From NCBI RefSeq assembly GCF_003634315.1, contig NZ_RBXL01000001.1, positions 5,374,501-5,438,500 of the forward strand: 64,000 bases of DNA, given 5' to 3'. This stretch comes from Thiocapsa rosea. Lineage in GTDB: Bacteria > Pseudomonadota > Gammaproteobacteria > Chromatiales > Chromatiaceae. Both the position numbers and the translations under genes were made by a program. Below, in pieces: positions 1,172 to 62,305 of the stretch (position 1 is the first letter of the stretch; each line of letters begins with the position of its first letter). A model generated the notes under the pieces. That model had not been told where the DNA came from. It was given only the letters and a program-made list of their open reading frames with translations, and did no database searches.

Positions 1172-1365
1172 TAAACCGCGCCCGGGGCGGTATGCGATGT
1201 TTTTGGATGAGATGGGCCCCGGCAGACTTGACAGCCGCTGGAGCTGGCGCGGTTTAAGGTATTAAAAAATTTATCATTTTAAACCGCGTCGCTCCTAAGG
1301 ACTCTATGGATACACCAAACGTCGAACTGACTCGAAAGTGAGCATTTCGCTCTGGACGCGGTTTA
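1172..1365. repeat. Fold-back repeat, full copy (A-linker-B)
   Basis: Module A (1172-1256) and module B (1280-1365) are each bounded by TAAACCGCG and CGCGGTTTA and are separated by an AT-rich linker of about 24 bp. The outer ends of A and of the reverse complement of B match, so the whole unit is an imperfect long inverted repeat. The last three bases (1363-1365) read as TAA on the minus strand and form the stop codon of the ClC gene. Confidence 0.9.
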
Positions 1366-3393
1366 GCGTGACTCAATCGGGACCAGGCGCTCGTCGGGTG
1401 CCAGGGGGCGGATCATCGGGGCGAGGCGCTGCAAGCGGGCTGGCAGGTTCGCCAGTGCTGTCTCGGCCGCGGTGCGGTCGGCATAGGCGCCGAGCAACAC
1501 TGGATGCCAACGCGCACCTTGTCCGTTCGTCTGCAGCTTAAATGCCTCACCGAGCAGCCCCTCGTCCTCGGCGAAACGCACAAGGCTGCGGGCATTACGG
1601 AAGCTGATCAACTGAATGCTGAAACGGGCGTCTGCCTCGATGGTGGACCCTTGATCGCTTGGCGCCGACGTCGTCGCGACGAGGTCCAACGTCGCCCGGT
1701 CGTCCGCCGGAGCCGGGTCAGCAGCGCGCGCCGTCGCGGACTCGGTGGATATCGGCGGCGCCGGCAGCTCTGCTGAAGCCAGCCGCTCCTCGGTCACCGG
1801 CCGGCGCTCGCCTGTTGGGCTGAGGGTCAAATCGGAACCGGCGACTTCGGGTGACGGGGCGGATTCAACGGCGGTTGGCGGTGACGTGACCAAGGCAGGC
1901 GCTGCCGGGGCGCTCGACGCAACCAGAGGCTGATCAGCACTCGTCCCGGACACTGCGGCCGGTTGGTCCGCCACGTCCGGACTCGGCGGCTTGACCTCGG
2001 CCAGGGTCTTGCCCGGTTCCATCCCCGTCCCCTGAAACGCGACGTCGAGTCGCTCGATGGCGATGAACGCGACCAAGAGCATCGCGGCGGCCAGGATGCG
2101 CCGAGCCGGTGCGCGCGGTGGTGACTGCTGTTGGAGTCCGAGCAGAGCGCTGTAGATCGGCCGTCCGCCCATGCCCTCGGCCGTGAAGGTGGCGGCCAGG
2201 CAGGTGATGATGATCGGCAGGGCCAGGGCCTGAGCGCCGGTGAGCTCGATCACCAGGATGATGCCGGTGAGCGGTGCGCGCACGGTGGCCGCGAAGAGCG
2301 CGCCCATGGCCGCGACCGCGAACATCTCCGGGGCGAGCGCCAGTGTCGGCGCCACGAGCGTGATCAGGGCCGCGAAGGCCGCGCCGCAGATGGTGCCGAG
2401 CGCGAGCATCGGCGCGAAGATGCCGCCCGGGAGACCCAGACCGTAGGAGCCGATGGACGTCAGCAGCCGCACCGCGAGCAGCACGACCAAAAAGAGCAAC
2501 GCCGGTTGGCCGTGCACCAGGCTCTCGACCAAACCTTCCCCGCCGCCGACGGTGTTGGGCGCGAACCACAGCAGCGCACCGAGCATCAGACCTGCGACGG
2601 CCGCGGCGGTATAGGCCCCGGGGGTCCCGAGCGCGCGGAACGACGCCACCGAGCCGAGCACCAGGCCGTTGAACAGCACGCCGAGAGCGCCGATGAGGAT
2701 CCCCAGGACCAGAAACAGCGGCAGCGCCTCCAGCGGTGCCATGTTCAGGTCCGGCATCGCCATATCGGGACCCTGTCCGAGCATCCAGCCGCTCACGATG
2801 ACGGCGGCGCAGCAGGCGAGGATGACGGACTGAATCGTCGCGAAGCGATACTCGAAGTGCTCGCGCAGCTCCTCGGTGACGAAGACGATCGAGGCGAGCG
2901 GCGCGTTGAAGGCGGTTGCCAAGCCGGCCGCCGCTCCGGCTGCGATGAGGGCGCGATTGGCGCCGGGTCGCGGCTCGATGCGCTCGCCGGCCATTTGACC
3001 AAGCGCCGCACCCATGTGGATGGTCGGTCCTTCGCGCCCAAGCACCAAACCGGAGCCGACCGCCAAGGCACCGGCAACGAACTTCACCGGCAGCACGCGC
3101 TTCCAGCGCAATTGGCGCTCGCCGGCGAGGATGGCCTCGACCTCTTGCACGCCGCTGCCCGCGGTCTCCGGGGCGAAACGTCGCACCAGCCACATCGCCG
3201 TGACCAGCACCAAGGCACCGAGCAGCATCAGCAGCAGCCAACCGGGTACGGGTGCCGCATCGAGAAACGCCTTCAAATCACCGCGGCTGGCGGCGGCTTG
3301 ATCCAGCAGCGCATGGAAGGCCGCGCCGATCAATCCGGTGAGGACGCCGACGAGGGTCGCTGCAACGTAAAGCCGCCAAGGAAACTTCATCAC
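1363..3393 (-). CDS. ClC-family chloride channel/antiporter with C-terminal SPOR domain
   Basis: The first 420 residues form a normal bacterial ClC core with many membrane helices: GSGVQ (79-83), GREGP (119-123, with the gating Glu at 121), GGIFAP (323-328) and a Tyr at about 414 in RPIYSALL. The gating Glu suggests a Cl-/H+ antiporter. Residues 433-446 form an extra hydrophobic helix, followed by about 140 Pro/Ala/Ser/Thr-rich residues and, from about 591, a SPOR-like domain (FSIQLISF ... HPVLLGAY). SPOR domains bind peptidoglycan stripped of peptides at division sites. The extra helix would place the domain in the periplasm (inference). At 676 residues it is well over the usual 430-470. The stop codon lies inside the neighbouring repeat. 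A DedA gene lies upstream on the same strand, 15 bases away. Confidence 0.85.
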   Translation of the reverse strand: MMKFPWRLYVAATLVGVLTGLIGAAFHALLDQAAASRGDLKAFLDAAPVPGWLLLMLLGALVLVTAMWLVRRFAPETAGSGVQEVEAILAGERQLRWKRVLPVKFVAGALAVGSGLVLGREGPTIHMGAALGQMAGERIEPRPGANRALIAAGAAAGLATAFNAPLASIVFVTEELREHFEYRFATIQSVILACCAAVIVSGWMLGQGPDMAMPDLNMAPLEALPLFLVLGILIGALGVLFNGLVLGSVASFRALGTPGAYTAAAVAGLMLGALLWFAPNTVGGGEGLVESLVHGQPALLFLVVLLAVRLLTSIGSYGLGLPGGIFAPMLALGTICGAAFAALITLVAPTLALAPEMFAVAAMGALFAATVRAPLTGIILVIELTGAQALALPIIITCLAATFTAEGMGGRPIYSALLGLQQQSPPRAPARRILAAAMLLVAFIAIERLDVAFQGTGMEPGKTLAEVKPPSPDVADQPAAVSGTSADQPLVASSAPAAPALVTSPPTAVESAPSPEVAGSDLTLSPTGERRPVTEERLASAELPAPPISTESATARAADPAPADDRATLDLVATTSAPSDQGSTIEADARFSIQLISFRNARSLVRFAEDEGLLGEAFKLQTNGQGARWHPVLLGAYADRTAAETALANLPARLQRLAPMIRPLAPDERLVPIESR

Positions 3394-3408
3394 CGGGCGC
3401 CGACCGAC

Positions 3409-5483: not shown

Positions 5484-5740
5484 AACGGGTCGGGTGAGCT
5501 GTGAGCCGCCCCGGGAGGTTGAGGGTCCGTTGGCTGCTCTCGAGCCCGACGATGTGGTGCTCGGCGGCGGCAACGCGAAACGTCTGACCGAGCTGCCCGC
5601 AGGCTGTCGATCGGGGGACAACTCCTACGCCTGTGTCGGCGGGCTCCGTGCCCGGGACCCGCAAACCGGCCCGCAAGCCGGGTTACCCACGTTCGCCGAT
5701 GAATCGCCTTCAGCGTGAGAATACAACGCCAGAGACCTAA
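5449..5740 (+). pseudogene. Scrambled remnant of tal 3' end and ppgK
   Basis: Bases 5449-5525 match the end of tal and the tal-ppgK gap (7092-7170). Bases 5531-5740 match the last 210 bases of ppgK (7708-7916), including the stretch coding for EPDDVVLGGGNAKR and the TAA stop that opens a fold-back repeat. About 530 bases of ppgK between these blocks are missing. This is a direct, partial and diverged duplicate lying upstream of the intact genes. It has no coding role except that it ends the phosphatase gene. Confidence 0.85.
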
Positions 5741-5764
5741 GCCGCGTCCGGAGCGACATGCGTC
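5738..5764. repeat. Fold-back repeat, truncated module B
   Basis: The sequence TAAGCCGCGTCCGGAGCGAC and a few following bases match the start of module B as found after ppgK at 7914. It breaks off at about 5764, where the second short repeat begins. It was probably carried along with the ppgK duplication. Confidence 0.65.
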
Positions 5765-7190: not shown

Positions 7191-7916
7191 TTGAAAATCC
7201 TCGCTGTCGATGTGGGTGGAACCCACGTCAAGATTCTCGCGAGCGGGCAGAGCGAGCGCCGGGAGTTCGAATCCGGACCCACCCTGACCGCTGCCGCGAT
7301 GGTCGAGCAGGTCAAGGCATTGGCTGCAGACTGGGCGTACGACAGGGTCACCGTCGGCTACCCCGGTCCGGTGCTGCACAACCGCCCGGTGGCGGAGCCC
7401 CATAACCTTTCCTCGGGGTGGGTCGCGTTTGATTTCGCCGACGCCTTCGGTCAGCCGGTCAAGGTGATGAACGACGCGGCCATGCAGGCACTCGGGAGCT
7501 ATCGGGGCGGGAAGATGCTGTTTCTCGGCCTCGGGACCGGGCTCGGGTCCACGATGATCGTGGCGGGTCAGATCGAGCCGATGGAGCTGGGCCACCTGCC
7601 CTACCGCAAGGGGACTTACGAGGATTATGTCGGGCTGCGCGGCCTCCAGCGACATGGCAAGAAAAAATGGCGGGCCTTTGTGGCGGACGTGGTCGAGCGT
7701 CTGGTGGCCGCTCTCGAGCCCGACGATGTGGTGCTCGGCGGCGGCAACGCGAAACGCCTGACCGAGCTGCCCGCAGGCTGTCGATTGGGAGACAACGCCA
7801 ACGCCTTTGTCGGCGGGTTCCGGGTCTGGGAGCCGAAGACCGGCCCGCAAGCAGCGCTCGCCACGCTCGCCGATGAATCGCCGTCGACGTCAGAATTACA
7901 AAGCCCGAGGCCCTAA
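7191..7916 (+). CDS. ppgK: Polyphosphate glucokinase (ROK family)
   Basis: The protein phosphorylates glucose, using polyphosphate (and in some members ATP). It has 241 residues: the phosphate-1 motif VDVGGTHVKI, GYPGPV, the catalytic Asp in VMNDAAMQALG, GLGTGLGST, and ELGHLPYRKGTYEDYVG, which is typical of PpgK. GGAGGGG lies before the ATG. The C-terminal 25 residues after WEPKTGPQAAL are poorly conserved and may be an add-on. The TAA stop (7914-7916) is the first three bases of a fold-back repeat, so the original stop was probably replaced. It is followed by pgi, fba, gnd and zwf. Confidence 0.9.
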   Translation: MKILAVDVGGTHVKILASGQSERREFESGPTLTAAAMVEQVKALAADWAYDRVTVGYPGPVLHNRPVAEPHNLSSGWVAFDFADAFGQPVKVMNDAAMQALGSYRGGKMLFLGLGTGLGSTMIVAGQIEPMELGHLPYRKGTYEDYVGLRGLQRHGKKKWRAFVADVVERLVAALEPDDVVLGGGNAKRLTELPAGCRLGDNANAFVGGFRVWEPKTGPQAALATLADESPSTSELQSPRP

Positions 7917-8106
7917 ACCGCGTCCAGAGCGAGATGCTAAATTTTCGGGTGGGCGCGACGTTCGGCGCATCCGCAGCCCTTAGCGGAGACGCGGTTTAAA
8001 ATGCTATATATTTTATAATCTTAAACCGCGCCGGCTCTAGCGGTCGTCACGTCTGCCGGTGCCGATCCTATCCAAAAAACATCGCATACCGCGTTAGGCG
8101 CGGTTG
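7914..8106. repeat. Fold-back repeat, full copy (B-linker-A)
   Basis: Module B (7914-7998), an AT-rich linker and module A (8022-8106) lie in the opposite orientation to the copy at 1172. The element fills nearly the whole gap between ppgK and pgi. It supplies the ppgK stop codon and ends just before the pgi ribosome site. Confidence 0.9.
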
Positions 8107-8128
8107 AATGCCCAGAGGAGCCGTGCGC

Positions 8129-10844: not shown

Positions 10845-11861
10845 ATGCAGCTCGGAATGATCGGCCTCGGCCGAATGGGCGCCAACATGGTGCGGCGGCT
10901 CATCGCAGGGGGACACGACTGTGTGGTGTTCGACCGCTCGCCGGATGCGGTGAATCAGTTGGTCGCCGAGCGTGCGACCGGGGCAAGCTCACTCGAAGAT
11001 CTGGTGCAGAAACTGGAACAGCCCCGGGCCCTGTGGCTGATGGTCCCCGCCGCGGTGGTGGACGAGACGATCGATGCGCTGCTGCCGCACCTTGCGCCGG
11101 AGGATATCTTGATCGATGGCGGCAACTCCTATTACGTGGACGACATCCGTCGCGCTAAGGCGCTCTCGGCCCGGGGCATCCACTACGTCGATGTCGGAAC
11201 GAGCGGCGGCGTCTGGGGCCTGGAGCGCGGCTACTGCATGATGATCGGTGGTGAGCCGGCGACGGTGAAGCACCTCGACCCGATCTTCGCCCGGCTTGCG
11301 CCGGGGATCGGCAACATCGACCGCACGCCGCACCGCGACCCGGCCAAGGGCACCGCCGAGCAGGGATACCTGCACTGCGGGCAGAACGGCGCTGGCCACT
11401 TCGTGAAGATGGTCCACAACGGCATCGAGTATGGGATCATGGCCGCTTACGCCGAGGGGCTCAACGTGCTCGCCGCCGCGAACGTCGGCAAGCAGACGCA
11501 TGAGATCGATGCCGAGACGACACCGCTGCGCGACCCCGAGCATTACCGGTACGACCTCGACCTGGCGGACATTGCAGAGGTGTGGCGCCGCGGCAGCGTG
11601 ATTGCGTCCTGGCTGCTCGATCTCACCGCAGGCGCGCTGAGCGAGGACCCCACGCTCGGCAAGTTCGCGGGGCGCGTGTCCGATTCCGGCGAAGGGCGCT
11701 GGACGATCAAGGCGGGCGTTGACGAGGGCGTGCCCACCCCGGTGCTGTCCGCAGCGCTGTACGAGCGTTTCAGCTCCCGCGGCAACGCCGAACTCCAGAA
11801 CAAGCTGCTGTCGGCCATGCGCTACGAGTTCGGCGGACACAACGAGAAACCGTCGGCATAA
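10845..11861 (+). CDS. gnd: 6-phosphogluconate dehydrogenase, decarboxylating (short form)
   Basis: Oxidises 6-phosphogluconate to ribulose 5-phosphate and CO2. The 338-residue protein has the nucleotide-binding start [43 protein letters not shown] and the catalytic [16 protein letters not shown]. The length fits the short Gnd class found in many bacteria (about 300-340 residues), not the 470-residue E. coli type. AGAGGGG precedes ATG 10845; an earlier in-frame ATG-like start at 10821 overlaps this ribosome site and is less likely. zwf follows after 22 bases. Confidence 0.93.
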
Positions 11862-11883
11862 CCGTTACCTAAGCGAGGCAACC

Positions 11884-13263
11884 ATGAGCGAGCTGCAATC
11901 CGATGCACTGGTCTTCTTCGGCGCCACCGGAGATCTCGCGTACAAGAAGATCTTCCCGGCGCTGCAGGCGATGGTGAAGCGCGGCACGCTGACGGTTCCG
12001 GTGATCGGCGTGGCGAAGGCCGGCTGGGACCTCGAACAGCTTAAGGCGCGCGCCAAGGCGAGTCTCGAGGAGCACGGCGGCGGGGCCGATCCGCAGGCCT
12101 TTCCCCGACTGATGGATCTGCTCGGATACGTGGATGGCGACTACGCCGACGCCGCGACCTTTCAGACCTTACGCCAACGGCTCGGCGACGCCCGGCGCCC
12201 CGCACACTACCTCGCGATCCCCCCGGTGCTGTTCGGGGCTGTGGTGGAGCAATTGGCGAAGGCCGGGTGCACGACCCCGGGCACCCGCGTCGTGGTCGAG
12301 AAGCCCTTCGGCCACGATCTGGACTCGGCGCGCGCACTGAACACGATCCTGCTGGCCACGTTCGACGAGGACCACATCTTCCGCATCGATCATTACCTGG
12401 GGAAGCGACCGGTCCACAATATGGTGTTCTTTCGGTTCACCAACCCGCTGCTCGAGTCGCTGTGGAGCCGCGAGCACGTCAAAAGCGTGCAGATCACCAT
12501 GGCGGAAGACTTCGGCGTGCAGGGCCGCGGCGCCTTCTACGACCAGACCGGCACGATCCGCGACGTGGTGCAGAATCACCTGTTCCAGGTGCTCGCGAAT
12601 CTGGCCATGGAGCCGCCGGCGCGCACCGACAGCGAGTCCATGCGCGACGAGAAGGTCAAGGTACTGAAGGCGATCCCACCCCTGACGGCGGCCGATCTGG
12701 TGCGCGGTCGGTTCCGCGGCTACCTCGACGAACCGGGTGTCGCCCCCGAGTCCACCACGGAGACCTTCGCGGCGCTGCGTCTCAAGATCGAAAACTGGCG
12801 CTGGGAAGGTGTGCCCTTCTTCATCCGCGCCGGCAAATCGCTCCCGGTCACTTGCACCGAGGTCGTTGCCCATCTGAAGCGGGCACCGCGGGTCTTCCCG
12901 GACTGCCGGCCTCACCGCAACTACTTCCGGTTCCGGATCTCCCCGGCCAACGAGATGGCGTTCGGACTCACGGTCATGGACGCCGAGGAGAAGGGTTTGG
13001 GACAAGCCACCGAGCTGCTGGCAAGCCGGCACGCGGAGGCGAACGAAATGGATGCCTACGAGCGTGTGCTGACCGACGCGATGAGCGGCGACCGGACCCT
13101 CTTCGCGCGGGAGGACTATGTGGAGGAAGCCTGGCGCATCGTCGATCCGGTGCTCACGGCGGGGACGCCGGTGCACGACTACGCGCCCGGCACCTGGGGT
13201 CCGCCAGAGACCGAGCAGGTCGCGCCACCGGAGGGCTGGGTCAACCCGGTGGTGGCCGGTTAA
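11884..13263 (+). CDS. zwf: Glucose-6-phosphate dehydrogenase
   Basis: First enzyme of the oxidative pentose phosphate pathway, making 6-phosphogluconolactone and NADPH. The 459-residue protein has the coenzyme motif GATGDLAYKK, the EKPFGHDLDSA motif and the active-site signature RIDHYLGK. No lactonase (pgl) gene is present in the cluster. The start follows AAGCGAGG. The stop TAA at 13261-13263 is the first triplet of a fold-back repeat, and the last residues (PEGWVNPVVAG) run directly into it. Confidence 0.95.
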   Translation: MSELQSDALVFFGATGDLAYKKIFPALQAMVKRGTLTVPVIGVAKAGWDLEQLKARAKASLEEHGGGADPQAFPRLMDLLGYVDGDYADAATFQTLRQRLGDARRPAHYLAIPPVLFGAVVEQLAKAGCTTPGTRVVVEKPFGHDLDSARALNTILLATFDEDHIFRIDHYLGKRPVHNMVFFRFTNPLLESLWSREHVKSVQITMAEDFGVQGRGAFYDQTGTIRDVVQNHLFQVLANLAMEPPARTDSESMRDEKVKVLKAIPPLTAADLVRGRFRGYLDEPGVAPESTTETFAALRLKIENWRWEGVPFFIRAGKSLPVTCTEVVAHLKRAPRVFPDCRPHRNYFRFRISPANEMAFGLTVMDAEEKGLGQATELLASRHAEANEMDAYERVLTDAMSGDRTLFAREDYVEEAWRIVDPVLTAGTPVHDYAPGTWGPPETEQVAPPEGWVNPVVAG

Positions 13264-13453
13264 ACCGCACCTCGCGCGGTATGCCATGCTTTTGGATGGG
13301 ATCGGCCCCGGCGGACTTGACGAGCGTTGGAGTCGGCGCGGTTTAAGATATTAAAAAAATAACAAATTTTAAACCGCGTCTCACCGAGATCGAGGGCATC
13401 TCCGAAGCCAAACGCAACATGAAAATGACGCATGTCGCTCTGGACGCGGTTTA
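13261..13453. repeat. Fold-back repeat, full copy (A-linker-B)
   Basis: Module A (13261-13345), an AT-rich linker with an A run, and module B (13370-13453). B is of a subtype with the sequence GATCGAGGGCATCTCCGAAG inside, also seen in reverse at 28667 and 39038. It supplies the zwf stop. Confidence 0.9.
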
Positions 13454-15266: not shown

Positions 15267-15352
15267 TAAACCGCGCCGGCTCCGACAGTCGTCGGAGCCG
15301 GCGCGGCCAAGCCAATTCCACACACGACGCATACCGCACCGGGCGCGGTTTA
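15267..15352. repeat. Fold-back repeat, solo module A
   Basis: A single module with TAAACCGCG and CGCGGTTTA ends. Inside it has a strong hairpin: GCGCCGGCTCCGAC pairs with GTCGGAGCCGGCGC. It fills the fumC-maeA gap and ends 14 bases before the maeA start. Confidence 0.88.
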
Positions 15353-28475: not shown

Positions 28476-28750
28476 TAAACCGCGTCCAGAGCGAGATGCT
28501 CGCTTTCGCGTGAGTTCGCCGTTGGGTGCATCCACGGCTCTTAGCGGGGACGCGGTTTAGAAATTTATATTTCTTAATACTTTAAACCGCGCCGGCTCCG
28601 ACAACGATCGGAGCCGACGCGGCCAAGCCAATCCAACACACTACGCATACCGCGCTGGGTGCGGTTTAAACCGCACCCAGAGCGAAATGCGACATTTTCA
28701 CTTTGCGTGTGGCTTCGGGGATGTCCTCGATCTCGGTGAGACGCGGTTTA
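28476..28750. repeat. Fold-back repeat cluster: full copy plus extra module B
   Basis: Module B (28476-28559), linker, module A (28583-28668), then a second, different module B (28667-28750) that shares the TTTAAA end with A. The A/B junction is a perfect 22-base palindrome (28657-28678, half site GGGTGCGGTTT). Module A has the strong inner hairpin CGCGCCGGCTCCGA/TCGGAGCCG. The cluster lies between two divergent genes, so here it does not supply a stop codon. Confidence 0.9.
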
Positions 28751-37511: not shown

Positions 37512-39040
37512 GGGTCCGCCATTCCTTAGCGCGCGTCGCCGGGGCTGCAGTGCTTACGCTGGCGCTGGCTGGCTGCGCCTCCAACGCGGCGAACATGACC
37601 TCCGCGTCGGCCGATCAGCCTTGGACGCCTCGCGGCGACGAGGAGACAGGCTTGTGGAGTCTCGCGCCCGCTGCGCAACCTGCGCCGGAGGATGGGGCTC
37701 CAAACTTCAGAATCCCCGCGGATTCGGCACGCGCACAACTCGCGCAGCCCGAGGGGATCGATCCGGCACGCGTCTATAGCCTGCCCGAGCTCATCGATCT
37801 GGCACAGCGGGCGAACCCGGCGACCCGAGCCGCCTGGCAGCAGGCTCGGCAGGCGGCGCTGGCCGTCGGCATGGTGGAGGCGACCTACCTGCCCGTCATC
37901 ACCGCGAGTGTGATCGGCGGGTATCAGGACCTGACGACGCCGCTGCCGGAGGTGCTCGGCGAAAGTCTCAGTTTCGAAACTACCGAAGAAGGTACGGCGC
38001 AGATTCTCGCGCTGCAGTGGCTGATTTTCGACTTCGGGCAGCGCCAGGCACTCGCGGCTGCGGCTAAGCATGCGGCGATCGCGGCGAACGTCCTCTTCAA
38101 CGGCACCCATCAAAAACTGATCTTCGACGTCTCGCAGGCTTACTACGTCTATGGCGCCGCGATCCAGCGACGCGGCTTTGCCGAAACGGCCTTGCGCAAC
38201 GCCGAAGCGGTCCGGACCGCTGTCGAGGCGCGCGAGGCGCAGGGGCTCGCCACCAGCGTGGAGACGGCACAGGCGCGCCAAGCCGTGGCACAGGCCGAGT
38301 TACGTCGGGTCCAAGCCGACGGGGGAGAGCGCGATGCGTATCAGAACCTGCTCGCCGCCGTGGGCGTGAACGCCGATGTGAGGGTCGATGCGGTGAGTGC
38401 CGCCCGCCGGCCGCTCCCGGCGCCGGCCTCTGCATCGCTCGAGGCGACGATCCAACTGGCGCTTTCGCAGCGGCCCGACGTTGCGGCAAGCTACGCGGCG
38501 ATGCAAGCCAGCAAGGCCGGTGTCAAAGCCGCGCAGGCGAACTATCTTCCCAAGGTCTATGCCGGCGGCAACATCGCTTCGGGCTCGGGCAACTTCGATG
38601 TGTCCGGTTTGCCCTCGATTGGCCAGCAAGGCTCGGGTACGGGCCTGCTCGTGGGGGTGACCGTACCACTCTACGACTCCGGTCTGCGGACGGCTCAGGT
38701 TAAAGAGGCTGAATCCCGGGCCGAGATGGCCGAGGATGAGTTTCAACGGGTGCAGACCGCAGCAGTAACCGAAATCGTTGCGGCCCGCAACGCGCTGCGG
38801 ACCGCGCTCGAATCGCACCGTGCCGCCACGGCGCTCGTCGGTGCCGCCTCGACCACTTATGATGCCGCCTTCGCGGCCTACCGCAATGGCGTCGGTACGG
38901 TCGATGCGGCGACAGCGGCCGACACTGCGCTGCTCGATGCACGCGAGGCTCAGGCAGAGGCGCATGCGGCTGCACTGATCAGCGCGGTGAACCTCGCCTT
39001 TGCGGTCGGCTCGCTGACCTCGCGCGAGAGTCTGCCCTAA
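37508..39040 (+). CDS. mdtP: TolC-type outer membrane factor of the MdtNOP system
   Basis: A 510-residue outer membrane efflux protein with a lipoprotein-type start: a hydrophobic signal and lipobox LAGC (about residues 20-23). Two OEP repeats follow, with YSLPELIDLAQRANPATRAAWQQ in the first and the second starting near ATIQLALSQRPDVAASYAAM. It would form the trimeric exit duct for MdtNO. It starts with ATG overlapping the mdtO stop. The TAA stop (39038-39040) is the first triplet of a fold-back module. Confidence 0.88.
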   Translation: MRVRHSLARVAGAAVLTLALAGCASNAANMTSASADQPWTPRGDEETGLWSLAPAAQPAPEDGAPNFRIPADSARAQLAQPEGIDPARVYSLPELIDLAQRANPATRAAWQQARQAALAVGMVEATYLPVITASVIGGYQDLTTPLPEVLGESLSFETTEEGTAQILALQWLIFDFGQRQALAAAAKHAAIAANVLFNGTHQKLIFDVSQAYYVYGAAIQRRGFAETALRNAEAVRTAVEAREAQGLATSVETAQARQAVAQAELRRVQADGGERDAYQNLLAAVGVNADVRVDAVSAARRPLPAPASASLEATIQLALSQRPDVAASYAAMQASKAGVKAAQANYLPKVYAGGNIASGSGNFDVSGLPSIGQQGSGTGLLVGVTVPLYDSGLRTAQVKEAESRAEMAEDEFQRVQTAAVTEIVAARNALRTALESHRAATALVGAASTTYDAAFAAYRNGVGTVDAATAADTALLDAREAQAEAHAAALISAVNLAFAVGSLTSRESLP

Positions 39041-39121
39041 ACCGCGCCCAGAGCGACATGCGTCGTTTTTAGTGTGCGTTTGGCCTCCGAGATATCCTCG
39101 ATCCCGGTGAGACGCGGTTTA
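39038..39121. repeat. Fold-back repeat, solo module B
   Basis: Module B of the GGTGAGACGCGGTTTA subtype, as at 28667 and in reverse at 13370. It is followed by a short AT-rich linker-like stretch (39122-39150) but no module A. It supplies the mdtP stop codon. Confidence 0.85.
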
Positions 39122-39232: not shown

Positions 39233-39934
39233 ATGTTCAATATACATCGCGGGAATCAAGCAACGAGCAGTTTCATGCGCGACTCCGCACCCGAAGAGCG
39301 CCCGGTCCGCTTCGCCATCCTGCTCTTCAGTCTGCTCGTTCTCGGCGCCAGCAGCGGCTTTGCGACCATCGGCATTGGGGAAGTACTGGGCAACATCGCT
39401 GCATCAGCGGTCCTGCTCGCCGGACTGGCCTCGATGTACCACAACCGGATACTACTCGTTGTCGGCTGCGTGCTTTTGGTGCCGGCACTCGCCGCCCGCT
39501 GGACCTTTTTCTGGCTCCAAGCCTCGGCGCTGGCGCCGATCTCGATCCTGTTCTCGCTGCTGTTTACCGGATTCAATGCAGGCGCACTCTTCCTCTACAT
39601 CCAGCGTCGCGGATCACCAACCAACGACACGGTTTACGGCGGCATCTGCGTCTACATCCTGCTCGGCTACTGCTTTGCGCTCGTGTTCATGCTCCTGGAG
39701 ATACTTGTACCGGGTTCGTTTTATTTCGCGCATGATGCCCCGGTCGGCATCCCGCAGATCGAGAGTCAGCTGATCTATTTCAGCTTCTCGACCTTGACCA
39801 CCGTGGGCTTCGGCGACATCACTCCATTGACGCCGCCGGCCAAGTCGTTCGCGATGATCGAGGCCGTTGTCGGCCCGATGTTCGTCGCGGTGTTTCTCGC
39901 ACGCTTGGTTGGAGTCCGGACCTCAAGCCACTAA
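39233..39934 (+). CDS. Two-pore-helix-type K+ channel (ion channel family)
   Basis: About 233 residues from ATG 39233, preceded by AAGG. It has several N-terminal membrane helices (LFSLLVLGASSGF, LLVVGCVLLVPALAA, SILFSLLFTGFNAGALFLY) and a C-terminal pore unit: helix ILLGYCFALVFMLLEILV, then the selectivity filter TTVGFGDI and a last helix AMIEAVVGPMFVAVFLARL. The filter shows a K+ channel. There is no cytoplasmic RCK or cyclic-nucleotide domain. ATG 39275 is an alternative start. The TAA stop (39932-39934) opens a worn fold-back module, and another module lies just upstream of the gene. Confidence 0.85.
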   Translation: MFNIHRGNQATSSFMRDSAPEERPVRFAILLFSLLVLGASSGFATIGIGEVLGNIAASAVLLAGLASMYHNRILLVVGCVLLVPALAARWTFFWLQASALAPISILFSLLFTGFNAGALFLYIQRRGSPTNDTVYGGICVYILLGYCFALVFMLLEILVPGSFYFAHDAPVGIPQIESQLIYFSFSTLTTVGFGDITPLTPPAKSFAMIEAVVGPMFVAVFLARLVGVRTSSH

Positions 39935-40030
39935 AGCGCGCCCAGCGCGTTATGCGATGTTTTTGGATGGGATCGGCACCGGCAGACGTGACGACCGTTG
40001 GAGCTGGCGCAGTGAAAAGTATTAAAAAAG
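39932..40030. repeat. Fold-back repeat, worn module A plus linker
   Basis: The start TAAAGCGCGCCCAGCGCGTT and the end GGAGCTGGCGCAGTGAAAAG match module A with point changes in the terminal inverted repeats, followed by the usual ATTAAAAAA linker; module B is absent. It supplies the stop codon of the K+ channel. Confidence 0.8.
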
Positions 40031-49194: not shown

Positions 49195-49250
49195 GCGCGT
49201 CAATGTCCTATATGGGATAAAGATCGCCCCTAGTCCCACGGTCACCCAGT
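49195..49250 (-). repeat. Short GGACATT repeat, reverse copy
   Basis: In reverse it reads GGGGCGATCTTTATCCCATA followed by TAGGACATTGACGCG, nearly the same as the copy at 51452, which is in the forward direction. The pair flank aspT as inverted copies. The rest of 49008-49431 holds no gene I can support; a short tandem CACCCAGT lies at 49242-49257. Confidence 0.75.
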
Positions 49251-49431: not shown

Positions 49432-51120
49432 TCAACTGAGCAACACGATCACAATGCCGAACAGCGTCAGGATGATGCTTGAGGTCGCATAGGCGACGGA
49501 ATAGCCAATGGCTGGCACGTCGCTTTGCGACTTGTCTGTAATCATGCTGAGCGCGGCGGCGGCGGTGCGTGAACCCGCACAACAACCGAACAGGATCGCG
49601 TCATCGAAGCGGAATAGATACTTTCCGATATAGATTGATAGCAGCATGGGCACGGCTGCTGCAGCGATGCTCCACAGCACAAACACATACCCCAGTTCTT
49701 TCAGCCCGTCAATGACGCCGGGGCCAGCGCTAAGACCAACAACGGCAATAAACATGTTTAGGCCGATTGAGCTCATAAACCAGGTCGTCGCCCGCGGCAC
49801 CCGACCAAAAGCAGGCCGGACAGAGCGCAGCCAGCCAAAGAGCAGGCCGACCAGAAGCACGCCGCCCGCCGTGGACAGTGTCAGCGGTATCGAGCCAACG
49901 TTCAGTGTCAGCGCGCCAATCAGCGCACCAAGGGTGATCGCTGCACCGATGAAGGCAATATCGGCACGCTCGGTCTCGCGGTCGAGATAACCGAGTTTTC
50001 CGGCAATAGCCGAAATATCCGCCGGGCGGCCAATCACCGAAACCACGTCTCCGCGATAGAGTCTTGTGTCTGGAAGAATCGGGATCGACACCGACATCGC
50101 GCCTCTGCGGATCGCGGTTAAGAAGATGCCGCGCGTATCCGGCAGTTGAGCGAGCTCAGCGAGCGTCTGGTTGTGGATATTTTTCGCCGTGATCAGGATG
50201 TCAGTGCCCTCGACATGAACACCAAGAAGCTCCGGGTCATCCACTTCCGCGAGAACTTGACCGACATTCTCCAGAAGGATGCTGCGCGAGCCTGAAATGG
50301 CGATGACATCGCCTGCCTCGAGCACAGTGGCCGTCGTTGCTTCGATGATCGCGTCTTTGCGACGAAGACGTGCGATAAATAGGCGGTGATTTTCAAAGAA
50401 GTGTTCGGCCTGCACGATTGTGAGCCCGACCATTGCTGAATCAGCATCAATACGATAGGCGCGTGCGACAAATTGGTGCCATGCTGTGCCTCGACCGCTT
50501 CGATCCGTTTCTCCACCGACACGTTTTATATAGTGACGACAGGCCGCGGGGAGGTCGATCCGAAGCAGCTTTGGACCGAGAAGGCCAAGAACGATGACAG
50601 AGCCGAATGTGCCGATGACATAGCTGATTGAAAAGGCGGCGGGCAGCATGTGGATGCTATCGGCTTTGACGGAATCTGCAAGCGCGGAATGCTCAATTGC
50701 GGTCTGTGACAGCCCAAGCGCCGACGACGTCGTTGTGGATCCGGCATAAAGGCCTGCCGCGATACCGACATCATAGCCAGCAAGCTTGACCACCAGATAG
50801 ACGGAGCCAAGGCTCAAGACGCAAACCAAAGCGGCGAAAAGCGCCTGCTGAAACCCGCCCGAAAACAGGCCGCGCACGAATTGCGGTCCAGCGCTGTAGC
50901 CAACCGCAAAGAGGTAGAACGCGAAGAAGATGGTCTTCACATCGGCAGAGATCGTGATGCCGATTTGACCGATCAACAGCGCGGCGAGCAGCGTGGCGGT
51001 CACGTCTCCCAGAGAGATGCCGGCGATCTGAACCCGGCCAACCGAATAGCCGATAAGTAGCGACAGAAAGAGCGGGATTTCAACATTGTCGCGAACTGTC
51101 GATAACAACCATTCCGTCAT
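49432..51120 (-). CDS. AspT/YidE-type aspartate:alanine exchanger family protein
   Basis: A 562-residue membrane protein with two membrane halves (about 10-190 and 385-562), separated by two TrkA-C (RCK-C) domains (about 215-375). The halves share patterns such as AGLYAGSTTTSSALGLSQTA and FGCCAGSRTAAAALSMITDK, typical of the AAE family. The lactic-acid bacterial AspT exchanges aspartate for alanine to drive proton-motive force; the substrate here is not proven. The base composition is visibly less GC-rich than the neighbours. It stands alone between inverted copies of the short repeat. Confidence 0.83.
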   Translation of the reverse strand: MTEWLLSTVRDNVEIPLFLSLLIGYSVGRVQIAGISLGDVTATLLAALLIGQIGITISADVKTIFFAFYLFAVGYSAGPQFVRGLFSGGFQQALFAALVCVLSLGSVYLVVKLAGYDVGIAAGLYAGSTTTSSALGLSQTAIEHSALADSVKADSIHMLPAAFSISYVIGTFGSVIVLGLLGPKLLRIDLPAACRHYIKRVGGETDRSGRGTAWHQFVARAYRIDADSAMVGLTIVQAEHFFENHRLFIARLRRKDAIIEATTATVLEAGDVIAISGSRSILLENVGQVLAEVDDPELLGVHVEGTDILITAKNIHNQTLAELAQLPDTRGIFLTAIRRGAMSVSIPILPDTRLYRGDVVSVIGRPADISAIAGKLGYLDRETERADIAFIGAAITLGALIGALTLNVGSIPLTLSTAGGVLLVGLLFGWLRSVRPAFGRVPRATTWFMSSIGLNMFIAVVGLSAGPGVIDGLKELGYVFVLWSIAAAAVPMLLSIYIGKYLFRFDDAILFGCCAGSRTAAAALSMITDKSQSDVPAIGYSVAYATSSIILTLFGIVIVLLS

Positions 51121-54617: not shown

Positions 54618-54618
54618 C

Positions 54619-55629
54619 GTGATCGAGCACATCTCTTTCTCGCTGCCGTTATTCTGGAGCGTGGTGCTGGCCTTTGCGATCTTGGTCTATGTGCTGCTCG
54701 ATGGCTTCGACCTGGGGGTCGGCATCCTCTTCGCACTCGACAGAGACGAGACGCACCGCCAGCAGATGATGGGCTCCATTGCGCCGGTCTGGGATGGCAA
54801 CGAGACCTGGCTGGTGCTCATCGGCACCACCCTCTTCGGCGCCTTCCCGGTGGTCTATGCGATCTTCCTCGCGGCCTTTTACCTGCCGGTCGCGCTTCTG
54901 CTCGTGGCCCTGATCCTGCGAGGCGTCGCCTTTGAGTTCCGCTATAAAGACAAGCGCCACCGCTGGCTCTGGGACCTGGGCTTCGTCCTCGGCTCGGTGA
55001 TCGCCGCGTTTATACAGGGCGCGGCGATTGGCGCCATGGTGGCCGGGATCGCGGTCCAGGACGGACGCTTCATCGGCGGCCCCTTCGATTGGCTCAGTCC
55101 CTTTTCAGTCCTCTGCGGTCTTGGGTTAGTCGTCGGATACGCGCTGCTCGGCGCCGGTTGGCTGGTGCTGAAGACCGAGGGCGGCCTGCGCGATTGGGCC
55201 TATGCTTGGCTGCCGCGGCTCCTGGCGGGGGTAATCGGTGTCGTCGTCCTGGCCCTGACCGCAACGCTCGTCGGGGACTTCGAGGTCGTCCGACGCTGGC
55301 TCGCGCAGCCCTGGCTGTTTGCGTTTCCGCTGCTCGCCAGCGCCGCCGCCTGGGGTCTCTGGCGCGGTGTCCAGGCGCGGCGTGACTGGCAGCCCTGGCT
55401 GATGGCCTCGGCGCTGTTCGTCACCGCGTTCGCGATGCTCGCCGGCAGCTTCTGGCCCTGGATCGTCCCCTATCACCTGACTGTCGAGCAGGCCGCGGCT
55501 CCAACCTCCTCGCTGAGCTTCCTGTTCTACGGCATCGGCCTGGTGGTGCTGCCGGTCATCATGGTCTACACCGCGGTTGTCTACTGGATCTTTCGTGGCA
55601 AGGTATCACCGGAGGCGATCAATGACTGA
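54619..55629 (+). CDS. cydB: Cytochrome bd-type quinol oxidase subunit II
   Basis: A 336-residue membrane protein with VLLDGFDLGVGILFALDRDE, SIAPVWDGNETWLVLIG, LRGVAFEFRYKD and late ASALFVTAFAMLAGSFWPWI, all usual for CydB/CioB. The start is GTG at 54619, with GGAGGCG before it and one base after the cydA stop. No cydX-like small membrane protein follows. The first 290 or so bases have a dead duplicate at 770. Confidence 0.94.
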   Translation: MIEHISFSLPLFWSVVLAFAILVYVLLDGFDLGVGILFALDRDETHRQQMMGSIAPVWDGNETWLVLIGTTLFGAFPVVYAIFLAAFYLPVALLLVALILRGVAFEFRYKDKRHRWLWDLGFVLGSVIAAFIQGAAIGAMVAGIAVQDGRFIGGPFDWLSPFSVLCGLGLVVGYALLGAGWLVLKTEGGLRDWAYAWLPRLLAGVIGVVVLALTATLVGDFEVVRRWLAQPWLFAFPLLASAAAWGLWRGVQARRDWQPWLMASALFVTAFAMLAGSFWPWIVPYHLTVEQAAAPTSSLSFLFYGIGLVVLPVIMVYTAVVYWIFRGKVSPEAIND

Positions 55630-56902: not shown

Positions 56903-56964
56903 ATGGAGCAGCGCGACTGGGGGACTGGAGGCAATTTTTATCCAATTTAGGACATTGACGCGCG
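56903..56964 (+). repeat. Short GGACATT repeat, long copy
   Basis: ATGGAGCAGCGCGACTGGGG, a G-rich part, TTTTTATCCAATTTAGGACA and TTGACGCGCG. It matches 51425-51486 in the same direction. The two enclose the flavoprotein-cydAB-regulator block. The bases from 56965 to 57181 hold a short gene-like frame (RFYGRSGSQTIRTDARTFDL at about 57065) without supported start; I do not call it a gene. Confidence 0.8.
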
Positions 56965-57181
56965 TTTCCGCCCGCTGGAAAATGTGCGGGAGAGGCAAGG
57001 CTATGGACCCATTGATGATCGACGTGACCGCTTGCGTGGCTGATGCCGCAGGGTACACGTGTTTTGCGTCGATTCTACGGTCGGTCGGGATCGCAAACCA
57101 TTCGGACCGATGCGCGCACCTTTGATCTGCACATCGACGGAAACAGCCACTTTTTTGATCGCTTCTATTTTATCAATCGCT

Positions 57182-57375
57182 TGAACTGCGCCCAGCGCGG
57201 TATGCGTAGTGTGTCCGATTGGCTTGGCCGCGCCGGCTCCGATCATTGCCGGAGCCGGCGCGGTTTAAGGTATCAAAAAATATACAATTTTAAACCGCGT
57301 CTCCGCTAAGGGGCGGTGGACGCACAAGACGTTGAACTCACTCGAACGTGAGCATCTCGCTCTGGACGCGGTTTA
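57182..57375. repeat. Fold-back repeat, full copy (A-linker-B)
   Basis: Module A (57182-57267, with a worn outer end TGAACTGCGCC) has the inner hairpin GCGCCGGCTCCGAT/GCCGGAGCCGGCGC; a linker with an A run follows; module B (57291-57375) matches that at 1280 closely. It lies before the porin gene, between two divergent genes. Confidence 0.9.
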
Positions 57376-58993: not shown

Positions 58994-60427
58994 ATGCCGA
59001 AGCAGGACGTCAAGACGCCAACGGGTCGCAGCGATCGGGATCCTCTGAACGACGAGGTCGAGAATGCCAACGACGAGACCTACGGTTCGACCGAGCTCGC
59101 CACGGGGCTCCCGAAGTCGACCTTCCCCGATGGCGAACGCGATCCGCGACGCATCTATGCCGCGGTCCGCGACGAGCTGATGCTCGACGGGAATTCGCGT
59201 CAAAACCTCGCGACCTTCTGCCAGACCTGGGAGGAGCCCGAGATCCATCGACTGATGGATGACTGCATCGACAAGAACATGATCGACAAGGACGAGTATC
59301 CGCAAACGGCCGAGATCGAATCACGTTGTGTGCAGATGCTCGCCGGTCTGTGGAACGCACCTGCCGGCGAGCAGGCGGTCGGTTGCTCCACCACCGGCTC
59401 CAGCGAGGCCGCCATGTTGGGCGGGCTGGCCATGAAGCGCCGCTGGGAGACGCGTCGCCGTGCCGAGGGCAAGCCCACCGACAAGCCCAATCTGATCACC
59501 GGGCCGGTCCAGGTCTGCTGGCACAAATTTACCCGCTACTGGGATATCGAGCACCGCGAAATCCCGATGGATAAGGGCCGGCTCCTGATGACGCCCGAAG
59601 AGGTCCTGAGCCGCTGCGACGAGAACACCATCGGCGTCGTGCCGACGCTGGGCGTGACCTTCACCGGAGAGTTCGAGCCGGTGAAGGCGATCAGCGATGC
59701 GCTGGATACACTCCAGGCCGACACAGGTCTCGATATTCCGATCCACGTCGACGGCGCCAGCGGCGGCTTCCTCGCCCCCTTCTGCGCACCCGAGTTGGAG
59801 TGGGACTTCCGCCTGCCGAGGGTGCGCTCGATCAACGCCTCGGGCCATAAGTTCGGCCTCGCCCCGCTCGGTGTAGGTTGGGTGCTGTGGCGCGAAGAAC
59901 AGGATCTGCCCGAGAGCATGGTGTTCTGGGTGAATTATCTCGGCGGCAACATGCGCGATATCGCGCTGAACTTCTCGCGGCCTGCCGGGCAGATCGTGTG
60001 TCAGTACTACAACTTCCTGCGCCTCGGGCGCGAGGGCTACCGAAAGGTCCATACCGCCTGCTATCGCAGCGCGGAATACCTGGCCGAGGAGATCGCGAAG
60101 ATGGGGCCGTTCGAGATCGTCTTCGGCGGGGACATGGCGCGCGGCATCCCGGCGGTGTCCTGGAAGCTCATCGACGGCACCGATCCGGGTTTCACCCTGT
60201 TCGATCTGGCCGATCGGCTCCGGGTCCGCGGCTGGCAGGTGCCGGCCTATACCTTGCCGGCGAATTGTCAAGACCAGGCGATCCAGAGGGTGTTGGTGCG
60301 CAACGGCGTGAGTCGCGACCTGTGCACGCTGCTCGTCGATCACATGAAGGCGGCCCTGAGCCATATCGACGCGCATCCGATTCAGGAGTCGCTCACGAGC
60401 AAAGAGGCATCGGGGTTCCATCACTAG
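58994..60427 (+). CDS. gadB: Glutamate decarboxylase
   Basis: A PLP enzyme that converts glutamate to GABA and CO2, using up a proton. The 477-residue protein has [20 protein letters not shown], the PLP-binding Lys in [27 protein letters not shown] and a C-terminal end with His-His (SGFHH), similar to the end of E. coli GadB, where the last residues take part in pH switching. ATG 58994 follows GAGGAG. gadC starts 152 bases downstream. Confidence 0.95.
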
Positions 60428-60579
60428 GACGTGCAACGCCCGAGGTCTCCACTGGCGTGCAGACCCTTCGGCGCCGGCATGGCGGGAGGGGGCTGCAATC
60501 CTCAAGAGCGGAGCCGGCGGACACAGGGCACTGCCCGGAATCGGCTTTTGGACTCGATGATCTGGAGAAGACTTTCGAC

Positions 60580-62115
60580 ATGGCTGCCAATACCGCAAAC
60601 ACACAATCGAAACAGCTCTCGTTACTGGGGTTCTTCGCCATCACGGCCTCCATGGTGATGGCGGTCTATGAATATCCGGCGTTCGCCACCTCCGGCTTCA
60701 GCCTGGTGTTCTTCCTGCTTCTGGGCGGCCTGCTCTGGTTCATCCCGGTCGGCCTGTGCGCGGCCGAGATGGCCACCGTGGAAGGCTGGCAAGAGGGTGG
60801 TGTCTTCGCCTGGGTGTCCAACACCCTCGGCGAGCGCTGGGGGTTCGCGGCGATCTCCTTCACCTACCTGCAGATCGCGGTCGGCTTTGTCCCCATGCTC
60901 TACTTCGTACTCGGGGCCTTGTCCTATATCCTGGCCTGGCCGGAATTGAACACGGACCCGGTCGTGAAGACCATCGCCGCCCTCGTCATCTTGTGGGCGC
61001 TCGCCGCGACCCAGCTCGGCGGCACGAAATACACCGCAAAGATCTCCAAGGCCGGCTTTTTCGGCGGTATTCTGCTGCCCGCCCTCATTCTGGTGTGTCT
61101 CGCGATCCTGCATCTGGCGAGCGGGGCGAAGCTGGAAATCACCATGGACGCGTCGACCTTTTTCCCCAATTTCACGCAGATCGGAACGATGGTGGTGTTC
61201 GTGGCCTTTATCCTCAGCTACATGGGGGTCGAGGCGTCGGCCACCCATGTCAATGAGATGCGCAACCCCGGGCGGGATTATCCGCTTGCGATCTTCTTGC
61301 TGATGCTCGCGGCGATCACGCTCAGCTCGATTGGTGGTCTGTCGGTCGCGGCCGTGATCCCGCATGACCAGATCAACTTGAGCTCAGGTGTTGTCCAGAC
61401 GTTCCATCAGCTCATCCTCACCCATGGCGGGACCGGTCTCGGATGGGTGGTCCGGATCATCGCCGCGCTGCTGCTGCTCGGTGTGCTGGCTGAGATCGCG
61501 GCCTGGATCGTGGGACCCTCGCGGGGCATGTATGTGACGGCCGAGAAGGGGATCCTGCCGGCCGCCATGGCCAAGGTGAACAAAAACGGCGTTCCCGTGC
61601 CGCTGGTTGTCTTCCAGCTCTTGCTGACCACTGTCGCCATCGTCGTGCTCACCAATACCGGCGGCGGCAACAACATGTCGTTCTTGATCGCGTTGGCGCT
61701 CACGGTCGTGCTCTATCTCATGACCTATTTCATGCTGTTTCTCGGCTATATGACGCTGGTGCTCAAGCACCCCGAGAAGAAGCGCGGCTTCAACATTCCC
61801 GGCGGCAAGGTGGTGAAGCTATTGGTCGCCAGTTCCGGCTTCCTGGTCTCGTTGCTCGCCTTCGTGGTGTCGTTTTTTCCGCCGAGCGGTCTGCCGGGCG
61901 GGGAGAGCACCGACATCTACGTGGGGCTATTGCTGGTGAGCTTCCTGGTGGTCGTCATGATCCCCTTCCTCGTCTACGCGTTGCAGGGTAACCGGCCGGG
62001 ACGGTTGGTGCACATCAACCACCACAACGCACCGGTCGGCCACTTTGCGATTCATCCGCGGGCCCGTGGTACCCATATCCTGGTGCCGCTCGACGCGCGC
62101 GAGGACACCGCTTAA
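60580..62115 (+). CDS. gadC: Glutamate:GABA antiporter
   Basis: A 511-residue APC-superfamily carrier, the same length as E. coli GadC, with 12 predicted helices. The start is [20 protein letters not shown], with [20 protein letters not shown] and [20 protein letters not shown] after it. The C-terminal 35 residues are polar and His-rich ([20 protein letters not shown]), which may act as the pH-sensitive plug known in GadC. It brings in glutamate and expels GABA. Ribosome site GGAGAAG. The TAA stop (62113-62115) is the first triplet of a fold-back repeat. Confidence 0.93.
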
Positions 62116-62305
62116 ACCGCGCCCGGTGCGGTATGCGTGATTTGTTGGAATGGCTTGGCCGCGCCAGCCCCGACGACTGTCGGAGCTGGCGCGGTTTGAA
62201 ATCTTAAATAATTTCAAAGTCTAAACCGCGTCTCCGCAAAGGTCGGACACATCCTTGAGCCCGACACACAATGAAAACGACGCATGTCGCTCTGGACGTG
62301 CTTTA
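62113..62305. repeat. Fold-back repeat, full copy (A-linker-B)
   Basis: Module A (62113-62198) with inner hairpin GCGCCAGCCCCGAC/GTCGGAGCTGGCGC, an AT-rich linker, and module B (62222-62305), ending in a worn GACGTGCTTTA. It supplies the gadC stop and lies between gadC and the glutaminase gene. Confidence 0.9.

What the first reader, a model, noticed from the sequence alone, without database searches (positions are those of the whole stretch)
1172..62305. A family of about 195-bp fold-back repeats with two inverted modules around an AT-rich linker
Seen directly: full copies at 1172-1365, 7914-8106, 13261-13453, 28476-28668, 57182-57375, 62113-62305; solo or worn modules at 5738, 15267-15352, 28667-28750, 39038-39121, 39932-40030. 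Each module is about 85 bp, bounded by TAAACCGCG/CGCGGTTTA. The outer 25 bases of A and of reversed B are alike, so a full copy is a long imperfect inverted repeat with an AT-rich centre. Modules occur in subtypes (inner hairpin type or not for A; at least two inner types for B) that are mixed between copies. Inference: a non-autonomous element, MITE-like or REP/BIME-like, that is exchanged module by module. No transposase is in the window.
Basis: partly seen in the sequence, partly recalled or inferred. Interest (0 to 1): 0.8.

Follow-up and report, generated by a model that had tools for sequence, protein, structure and literature searches.

The report
Stop-codon hairpin repeats in purple bacteria
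A purple sulfur bacterium carries hundreds of copies of an 85-base fold-back DNA module that often supplies the stop codon of the gene beside it and whose paired ends and length are better conserved than its middle.

Summary
The genome (genus Thiocapsa, Chromatiaceae) holds 582 exact modules TAAACCGCG-N52-75-CGCGGTTTA, against 0 for the reversed control. Seven of ten congeners and, in number, two other genera have them too.

The unit is a module of about 85 bp, used alone or as an inverted A / AT-rich linker / B pair (about 194 bp). Families A and B are young and often missing at the same site in close relatives. About a hundred other modules ("old") have unrelated interiors but the same ends, and mostly stay in place.

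In old modules pairing covers 12 positions and stops sharply. Arms mostly carry matching changes, length is held, and the interior drifts. At orthologous sites stems change four times less than interiors, but most of those few changes hit one arm only. Ends sit on stop codons: 60 of 64 genes running into an element end on its first codon.

No linked transposase was found, and most empty sites do not support a TA target duplication. It works like a REPIN/BIME but fails their tag and RAYT tests. I rate it a new variant of a known kind; the recognising factor is unknown.

The parts
1172..1365 (+). full unit A (1172-1256), AT linker, B (1280-1365); its right end (TTA on +) is the stop codon of the minus-strand ORF 1363-3393
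5738..5751 (+). worn left end of a module (TAAGCCGCGTCCGG); no right end found
   Evidence: not called as a module
7914..8107 (-). full unit B (7914-7998), linker, A (8022-8107); its TAA ends ORF 7191-7916 in the ORF list, but that flank was not scored as coding; no element at this site in close relative G003
13261..13453 (+). full unit A (13261-13345), linker, B (13370-13453); its TAA ends ORF 11719-13263
15267..15352 (-). solo A module with an inner hairpin, 14 bases before the malic enzyme ORF 15367-17157
28476..28750 (.). triple unit B (28476-28559), linker, A (28583-28668), B (28667-28750); the last two modules share the bases TA
39038..39121 (-). solo B module; its TAA ends the outer-membrane efflux ORF 37508-39040
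39932..40030 (+). worn A module and start of its linker
50039..50121 (.). weak candidate for an old-type module (3 end mismatches); may be chance (reversed control gives 2 per 1.264 Mb)
57182..57375 (+). full unit A with inner hairpin (57182-57267), linker, B (57291-57375); no element at this site in G003, junction too diverged to read a target
62113..62305 (+). full unit A (62113-62198), linker, B (62222-62305); its TAA ends the amino-acid permease ORF 59878-62115; G003 has the same B but a different A and linker at this site

Best explanation
These are mobile hairpin elements of the REPIN/BIME way of working. The basic unit is an 85-bp module that can fold as a single strand: a 12-bp stem, YTRAACCGCGYC against its complement, closes a loop of about 60 nt whose length matters and whose sequence does not. 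A and B modules are spread together as an inverted pair around an AT-rich linker. Solo modules arise at least partly by deletion between the direct repeats inside a pair (inferred from two sites). Copies settle so that the TAA/TGA at the stem end becomes the stop codon of a neighbouring gene, which makes the insertion harmless. Spread is probably driven in trans by an enzyme that recognises the folded strand (inferred; not found). After insertion the ends and the length stay under some selection in place, so a factor of the cell or of the element still recognises them (constraint shown; factor, benefit and the need for pairing inferred).
For: Abundance and spread. Young A and B families, nearly always joined A to B. 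Young units often missing in relatives, old units mostly kept: missing at 10 of 15 young and 2 of 10 old sites, this genome to G003. Module change at single sites. Stop-codon placement: of genes running into an element, 61 of 64 are in phase with its first codon here, 60 of them TAA or TGA, and 41 of 45 in G003; with a retrained codon table 60 of 64 and 40 of 45, plus 9 of 9 in G001 and 4 of 4 in G042. 117 of 260 gene 3' ends facing a unit end exactly on it. Paired changes: 90 old modules have 0:28, 1:2, 2:48, 3:12 end errors; 44 of the 48 are one matching change on both arms. 88 non-redundant old modules have 56 cells with a both-side change that keeps pairing, against a mean of 15.4 and maximum of 24 in 500 shuffles. 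Pairing is above expectation at -1, 1, 2, 5, 6, 10 and 11 (3, 4, 7-9 near-invariant) and below it at -2, 12 and 13. In 12 orthologous old modules stems differ at 13 of 264 sites and interiors at 148 of 754, with 3 gap events; noncoding DNA outside modules has 1022 substitutions in 6889 sites and 86 gap events. In tandem gene contexts sense-strand mismatches show no G-U over A-C preference (old 13 vs 12, young 31 vs 31), which leans to a DNA strand.
Against: At the orthologous sites direct compensation is rare: of 12 changed stem positions in old modules 1 changed on both arms, 8 broke a pair and 3 made one; in young modules 1, 4 and 2. In the module shared by five congeners with intact ends, G003 has the same length but a broken right arm. 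Much of the arm agreement could thus be inherited from old subfamilies (TGA type) rather than kept by selection. Orthologue pairs were counted only where one alignment spans the module and where this genome's ends are good, which favours few gaps and conserved stems. No recognising enzyme was identified; Y1 transposases are not linked. Three congeners have no exact module. REP tags are absent. 'Old' is defined by failing a BLAST threshold and all modules are found by their ends.
Confidence: 0.5

Rival explanations
1. An IS630/Tc1-mariner type MITE: ends AACCGCG, target YTAR, the TA duplicated; insertion into TAA/TAG stops restores a stop.
For: The base before a unit is a pyrimidine and the base after it a purine in 130 of 144 units. 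Adjacent modules can share TA. Two empty sites carry TA (G003 C26:7414 versus own; G003 C15:11745 versus G001).
Against: At six other empty sites, aligned by eye, the relative has CA, AA, GA, TG, TC or CG where TA is expected. TG..CA ends go together, which a direct duplication would not give. IS630 copies L091-L094 end in TATACCTC. No module lies in the seven DDE_3 loci.
Confidence: 0.2
2. An RNA element: a 3'-end hairpin on the mRNA that stabilises, terminates or processes transcripts, with the stop codon in its first base pairs.
For: Position at stop codons; fewer divergent contexts (30 of 226 placed units versus 199 of 1007 gaps); matching arms.
Against: No G-U over A-C preference on the sense strand. 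Interiors of old modules have no extra structure (mean z -0.10 and -0.07 on the two strands, n = 78; sampled A modules about -1, B about +0.3). A loop of about 60 nt is unlike an intrinsic terminator.
Confidence: 0.2
3. A pair of double-stranded protein-binding sites held about eight helical turns apart, such as a nucleoid or loop-forming factor.
For: Fixed length with free interior; near-invariant core positions 3, 4, 7, 8 and 9; most changes at orthologous stems hit one arm.
Against: Independent sites need not agree, yet arms agree far beyond shuffles in old modules, and two of 18 orthologous modules show a matching double change.
Confidence: 0.17
4. No selection on pairing: arms agree because old subfamilies carried the change on both arms, or because template switching between the inverted arms copies one onto the other.
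For: TGA-type ends are common in old modules and rare in young ones; single-arm changes dominate at orthologous sites. Quasipalindrome correction is established knowledge (recalled).
Against: Does not explain why stems change four times less than interiors, the held length, or pairing below expectation just outside the stem. Double changes at the same orthologous site do occur: 290396 and own2 166584, and the second module beside 516867.
Confidence: 0.13

Closest known systems
REPIN (two inverted REPs forming a hairpin; Bertels and Rainey 2011, PMC3116915, passages read)
   Same: Two inverted conserved ends, fixed spacing, less conserved spacer whose length matters, matching changes on the two sides, hundreds of dispersed copies.
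   Different: Ends are an 11-12 bp non-palindromic word without GTAG; no linked RAYT found; modules pair again around an AT-rich linker; placed on stop codons.
BIME / REP dimers and TIR families of TIRYT transposases (PMC3733652, passages read)
   Same: Inverted pairs with linkers; that paper also says GTAG REPs often provide a TAG stop codon to flanking ORFs, and describes TIR repeat families near Y1-type transposases.
   Different: Modules are 85 bp with a long drifting loop; no GTAG/CGTC tag; no Y1 gene flanked on both sides by these ends was seen in the 36 loci read.
Pneumococcal BOX elements (PMC3049150, passages read)
   Same: Modular small repeats; in 36 cases the repeat encodes the stop codon of a gene.
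   Different: Built of boxA/B/C modules with variable numbers of boxB; sequence relation not tested.
IS630-mobilised MITEs such as RUP (PMC2229807, passages read)
   Same: Short terminal inverted repeats with TA at the termini, no coding capacity.
   Different: TA duplication not supported at most empty sites; no IS with matching ends found.
Caulobacter CIR repeats (PMC2229807, passages read)
   Same: A stem loop formed by pairing of the 5' and 3' ends, TA at termini, not found inside genes.
   Different: CIR carry a GANTC motif; sequence relation not tested.

Membership tests
REPIN / REP-RAYT | two inverted conserved ends with fixed spacing | tested here: met
   lengths 84-86 in 186 of 208 modules; ends TRAACCGCGYC
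REPIN / REP-RAYT | matching (compensatory) changes between the two ends | tested here: met
   across old modules; but at orthologous sites only 2 of 19 changed stem positions changed on both arms
REPIN / REP-RAYT | each end is a REP palindrome tagged GTAG (or CGTC) | tested here: not met
   end profile shows no such palindrome or GTAG tag
REPIN / REP-RAYT | a RAYT gene flanked by the repeat | tested here: not met
   36 of 100 Y1 matches in the genus read with about 1.5 kb flanks (all 9 of this genome); 8 have a module or end, five of them one orthologous locus, none flanked on both sides
IS630-type MITE | TA target-site duplication | tested here: inconclusive
   8 empty sites scored by eye: TA in 2, other dinucleotide in 6
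IS630-type MITE | ends shared with an IS630 transposase in the genome | tested here: not met
   copies L091-L094 end in TATACCTC; ends of L095-L097 not determined; no module in any of the seven loci
BIME | mosaic of inverted modules and linkers, extragenic, at gene 3' ends | tested here: met
BIME | built of REP units | tested here: not met
Known structured RNA family | match to an Rfam model | tested here: not met
   gathering threshold: only 5_ureB_sRNA at 47686-47963, not at a module

The most novel reading that the evidence does not exclude
A new class of host-maintained DNA hairpin: a 12-bp stem of exact length closing a loop of fixed length and free sequence, set on the stop codons of many genes, read as a folded single strand by an unknown factor in Thiocapsa and a few relatives, and copied by A/B pairs that spread as mobile elements carrying the same signal.
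Probability: 0.22. Interest if true: 0.85.

Novelty: new variant of a known kind. Interest (0 to 1): 0.6.

Why it matters
REPIN-like hairpins are usually seen as elements that persist by copying. Here orthologous copies can be followed in place across species, and ends and length are kept while the loop drifts. That makes a long-standing question (do such repeats do anything for the cell, and is the folded strand the signal?) testable with simple arm-break and arm-restore mutants and with more strains. The placement on stop codons shows how hundreds of insertions can be carried at little cost in a compact genome.

Tried and rejected
Copies of the 57182 unit in the plasmid and phage collections: no match. 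Interiors as coding sequence: substitutions show no codon phase in the five-species module (14, 12, 14 by phase); ten orthologous pairs give 59 of 116 in the best phase against 53.5 +/- 2.8 by chance, slightly above; rejected. Extra structure inside old modules: none. Linker as a bidirectional terminator: no terminator test was run; linkers are AT-rich (0.85 in 71 young pairs, 0.73 in 14 old-old pairs, 0.36 for random 23-mers). An alternative stem at fixed spacing in G006: nothing recurrent in the 40 kb read. Genes between neighbouring units as a hidden transposase: 50 intervals listed and 24 translations printed; none was scanned against a library, so this is not a test. Class-wide distribution: 1 of 369 genomes drawn evenly has the pattern, this genome itself. 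Literature: seven searches listed no paper whose title or shown abstract describes this repeat; the passages that I read in the T. bogorovii genome paper PMC10892978 do not mention it.
Full report
Where this is. The window is G000:C1:5374501-5438500 of a 6.11-Mb genome in two contigs. The genus is Thiocapsa. A fetched contig titled 'MAG: Thiocapsa sp.' (L070, 6309 bases) has the same length as contig C123 of congener G003, and both give the same long matches to the window. Congener G004 is one contig of 5,649,927 bases, the chromosome length given for T. bogorovii BBS in PMC10892978 (passages read). NCBI places Thiocapsa in Chromatiaceae, Gammaproteobacteria. Which species G000 is I do not know.

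The six full copies and the three clean solo modules are present as described. Ends are over-represented in the window and in the genome (781+800 against 25+27 for the reversed pattern). The pattern TAAACCGCG-N52-75-CGCGGTTTA gives 582 in this genome and 0 for the control. Of 93 genomes searched 13 have a match: this genome; congeners G001 471, G003 340, G005 309, G002 274, G004 211, G008 168, G009 120 (0 in G006, G007 and G010); other genera of the family G042 267, G028 80, G040 3, G031 1, G044 1; none in the 35 genomes of other families. Allowing TGA-type ends gives 671 in this genome; in an even draw of 369 genomes of the class only this one matches.

Anatomy. In 1.264 Mb of this genome a finder (each end with at most 2 mismatches, at most 3 in total, length 81-89) gives 208 modules in 144 units: 84 single, 56 double, 4 triple; the reversed sequence gives 2. 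Lengths are 84-86 in 186 of 208, and the commonest linker is 23 bases. Clustering of interiors over 338 modules from four genomes gives two large families, A (123) and B (113); the other 102 ('old') are singletons or groups of at most three. Of 68 doubles made only of A and B, 67 join A to B (39 A-B, 28 B-A) and one is B-B; there are also 16 old-old doubles, 3 doubles of a young and an old module, and 4 triples. The linker stays AT-rich in old-old doubles (0.73 in the 14 measured, lengths 16-31) against 0.85 in 71 young pairs and 0.36 for random 23-mers. Both orientations are about equally common in this genome (25 A-B, 22 B-A).

Stop codons. Using codon usage to choose the reading frame of each flank, genes that run into an element are in phase with its first codon in 61 of 64 cases here (TAA 52, TGA 8; one reads TTA and is the weak candidate at window 50039, so 60 true stops) and 41 of 45 in G003 (TAA 36, TGA 5). 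With the codon table retrained per genome the figures are 60 of 64, 40 of 45, 9 of 9 in G001 and 4 of 4 in G042. One third is expected by chance. With a crude gene caller, 117 of 260 gene 3' ends facing a unit end exactly there. 226 units could be placed, 2 more lie inside a called gene; contexts are 132 tandem, 64 convergent and 30 divergent, against 622, 186 and 199 of 1007 intergenic gaps. In the window the element's TAA (or TTA) at 1363-1365, 7914-7916, 13261-13263, 39038-39040 and 62113-62115 ends an ORF; the flank at 7914 was not scored as coding. Repeats that supply stop codons have precedents: BOX elements (PMC3049150) and GTAG REPs (PMC3733652), passages read.

Flanks and target. The base before a unit is a pyrimidine and the base after it a purine in 130 of 144 units here and 68 of 73 in G003. 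This suggested a YTAR target with TA duplicated. Empty sites do not bear it out well. At the eight that I could score by eye, the relative has two bases where the element's TA stands. These are TA at two (G003 C26:7414 versus own; G003 C15:11745 versus G001) and CA, AA, GA, TG, TC and CG at six (own1 518691, own2 107914 and own2 435755 versus G003; own2 65951 and 50333 versus G001; G001 42213 versus own). At 518691 and 65951 the two bases could be part of a TGA stop in the relative. In several of these the aligned flank stops some bases short of the junction. Other sites, among them window 57182, were too diverged or rearranged to score.

Change at single sites. At 62113 the B module is shared with G003, but the A module and linker are of another type. 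At 363303 this genome has what reads as a right-hand module and G003 a left-hand module in the identical place, as expected if each kept a different half of a double by deletion between the direct repeats. At own2:1977 this genome has a solo A where G003 has a worn A, linker and B. Placing this genome's units in G003, young units have no module at 10 of 15 sites and old units at 2 of 10; the other way round, 4 of 7 and 1 of 11. This genome to G001: 7 of 8 and 0 of 1; the reverse: 4 of 5 and 1 of 2.

Constraint. In 90 old modules of two genomes, errors against the end consensus number 0:28, 1:2, 2:48, 3:12; 212 young modules give 0:140, 1:51, 2:18, 3:3. By the pairing counts, 44 of the 48 are one matching change on both arms, most often TAA..TTA to TGA..TCA. 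On 88 non-redundant old modules of four genomes 905 of 968 stem cells pair (500 shuffles: 818 +/- 6, maximum 837), and 56 have a both-side change that keeps pairing (15.4, maximum 24). Within A alone (2 against 0.8, maximum 4) and B alone (9 against 1.7, maximum 6) the effect is small. In 86 old modules pairing is above expectation from base -1 (0.81 against 0.46) to base 11, save at the near-invariant positions 3, 4 and 7-9, and below it at -2 (0.16 against 0.28), 12 (0.20 against 0.34) and 13 (0.16 against 0.29); young modules also pair at -1 (0.64 against 0.53) and show many positions below expectation inside, as their fixed family sequences would give. Twenty modules could be aligned between this genome and G003; two young ones were set aside as exchanged or too different (363303, own2 5073). 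The six young left, which include the swapped A at 62113, differ at 8 of 132 stem and 58 of 378 interior sites with 3 gap events; the 12 old at 13 of 264 and 148 of 754 with 3 gap events. Noncoding DNA outside modules has 1022 substitutions in 6889 sites and 86 gap events, coding DNA 9.8% substitutions. Only modules spanned by one alignment and with good ends in this genome enter, which favours few gaps and conserved stems.

The result against me. Rechecking those 18 modules, 12 stem positions changed in old modules: 1 on both arms (own2 166584, TAA..TTA to TGA..TCA), 8 single-arm changes that break a pair and 3 that make one; in young modules 1 (290396), 4 and 2. A further double change, TAAAGC..GCTTTA to TGAAGC..GCTTCA, is visible in the second module beside 516867, which was not among the 18. 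So stems are kept about four times better than interiors, but most of the few changes are not compensated, and part of the arm agreement may be inherited from old subfamilies. One old module near a Y1 gene is found in five congeners (this genome counted) with the same length (84), 23 of 24 terminal bases invariant and interiors averaging 67% identity. In G003 the orthologue is there, also 84 long, but its right arm is broken; G001 and G009 were not read there, and the matches of G006, G007 and G010 begin just after the module. There is no clear codon phase in the interior, no extra folding in old modules, and in tandem contexts no sense-strand preference for G-U over A-C mismatches (13 and 12, with 18 others, in old modules; 31 and 31, with 27 others, in young).

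Looking for the engine. Y1 transposases (PF01797): 9 here, and in all 11 genomes of the genus including the three without exact modules, 100 matches in all. 8 of the 36 loci read have a module or exact end within about 1.5 kb, of which five are the one locus above. DDE_3 (IS630): seven here, none with a module, and the ends read for L091-L094 are unrelated. Intervals between neighbouring units were listed but not scanned. The engine is unknown.

Reading. The anatomy (inverted ends, fixed spacing, free spacer, matching arms, mosaic pairing) is that of REPINs/BIMEs. [quoted passage not shown] The family fails the sequence tag and the RAYT link, so I do not file it there. The new points are the sharply bounded stem with a held length and a drifting loop, the better conservation of the ends in place, and the systematic use of the stem end as a stop codon. 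The absence of strand asymmetry makes a folded DNA strand somewhat more likely than an mRNA hairpin, but the numbers are small.

Limits. Old and young are operational labels from a BLAST threshold; modules are found by their ends; genes were called by simple scripts; only part of each relative was read; empty sites were aligned by eye; benefit to the host is inferred from constraint, not shown.

Noticed in passing
G000:C1:5496845-5618453: A 121.6-kb stretch without a module or exact end (about 14 units expected at the density found), with lower G+C in parts and IS630-type hits (L094-L096); perhaps a recently acquired island.
   Followed up: partly
window 49164-49243, 51425-51513, 56903-56991: A second dispersed repeat of about 70-90 bp (74-84% alike, one copy inverted); contig L070 also has a match at 840-895.
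   Followed up: no
window 40030-40155: A 128-nt stretch directly after the worn A module is 90% identical to DNA in IS630 locus L094, 1813-1940.
   Followed up: no
own genome near C1:5654861 and G001:C1 near 44885: Another palindromic repeat of the kind TCGTTGTCGTTGTCG ... CGACAACGACAACGA stands next to modules; TCGTTGTCGT recurs in perfect inverted arms.
   Followed up: no
window 5517-5722 and 7691-7896: Duplicated 206-nt stretches, 86% alike; each is followed by a module or a worn module end at the same place (5738 and 7914).
   Followed up: partly
window 47686-47963 (+): Rfam reports 5_ureB_sRNA antisense to the urease alpha ORF 46418-48139; perhaps an echo of the conserved urease coding sequence.
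   Followed up: no
window 756-1032 and 54605-54881: A 277-nt direct repeat, 83% identical, 53.8 kb apart; it overlaps no module.
   Followed up: no
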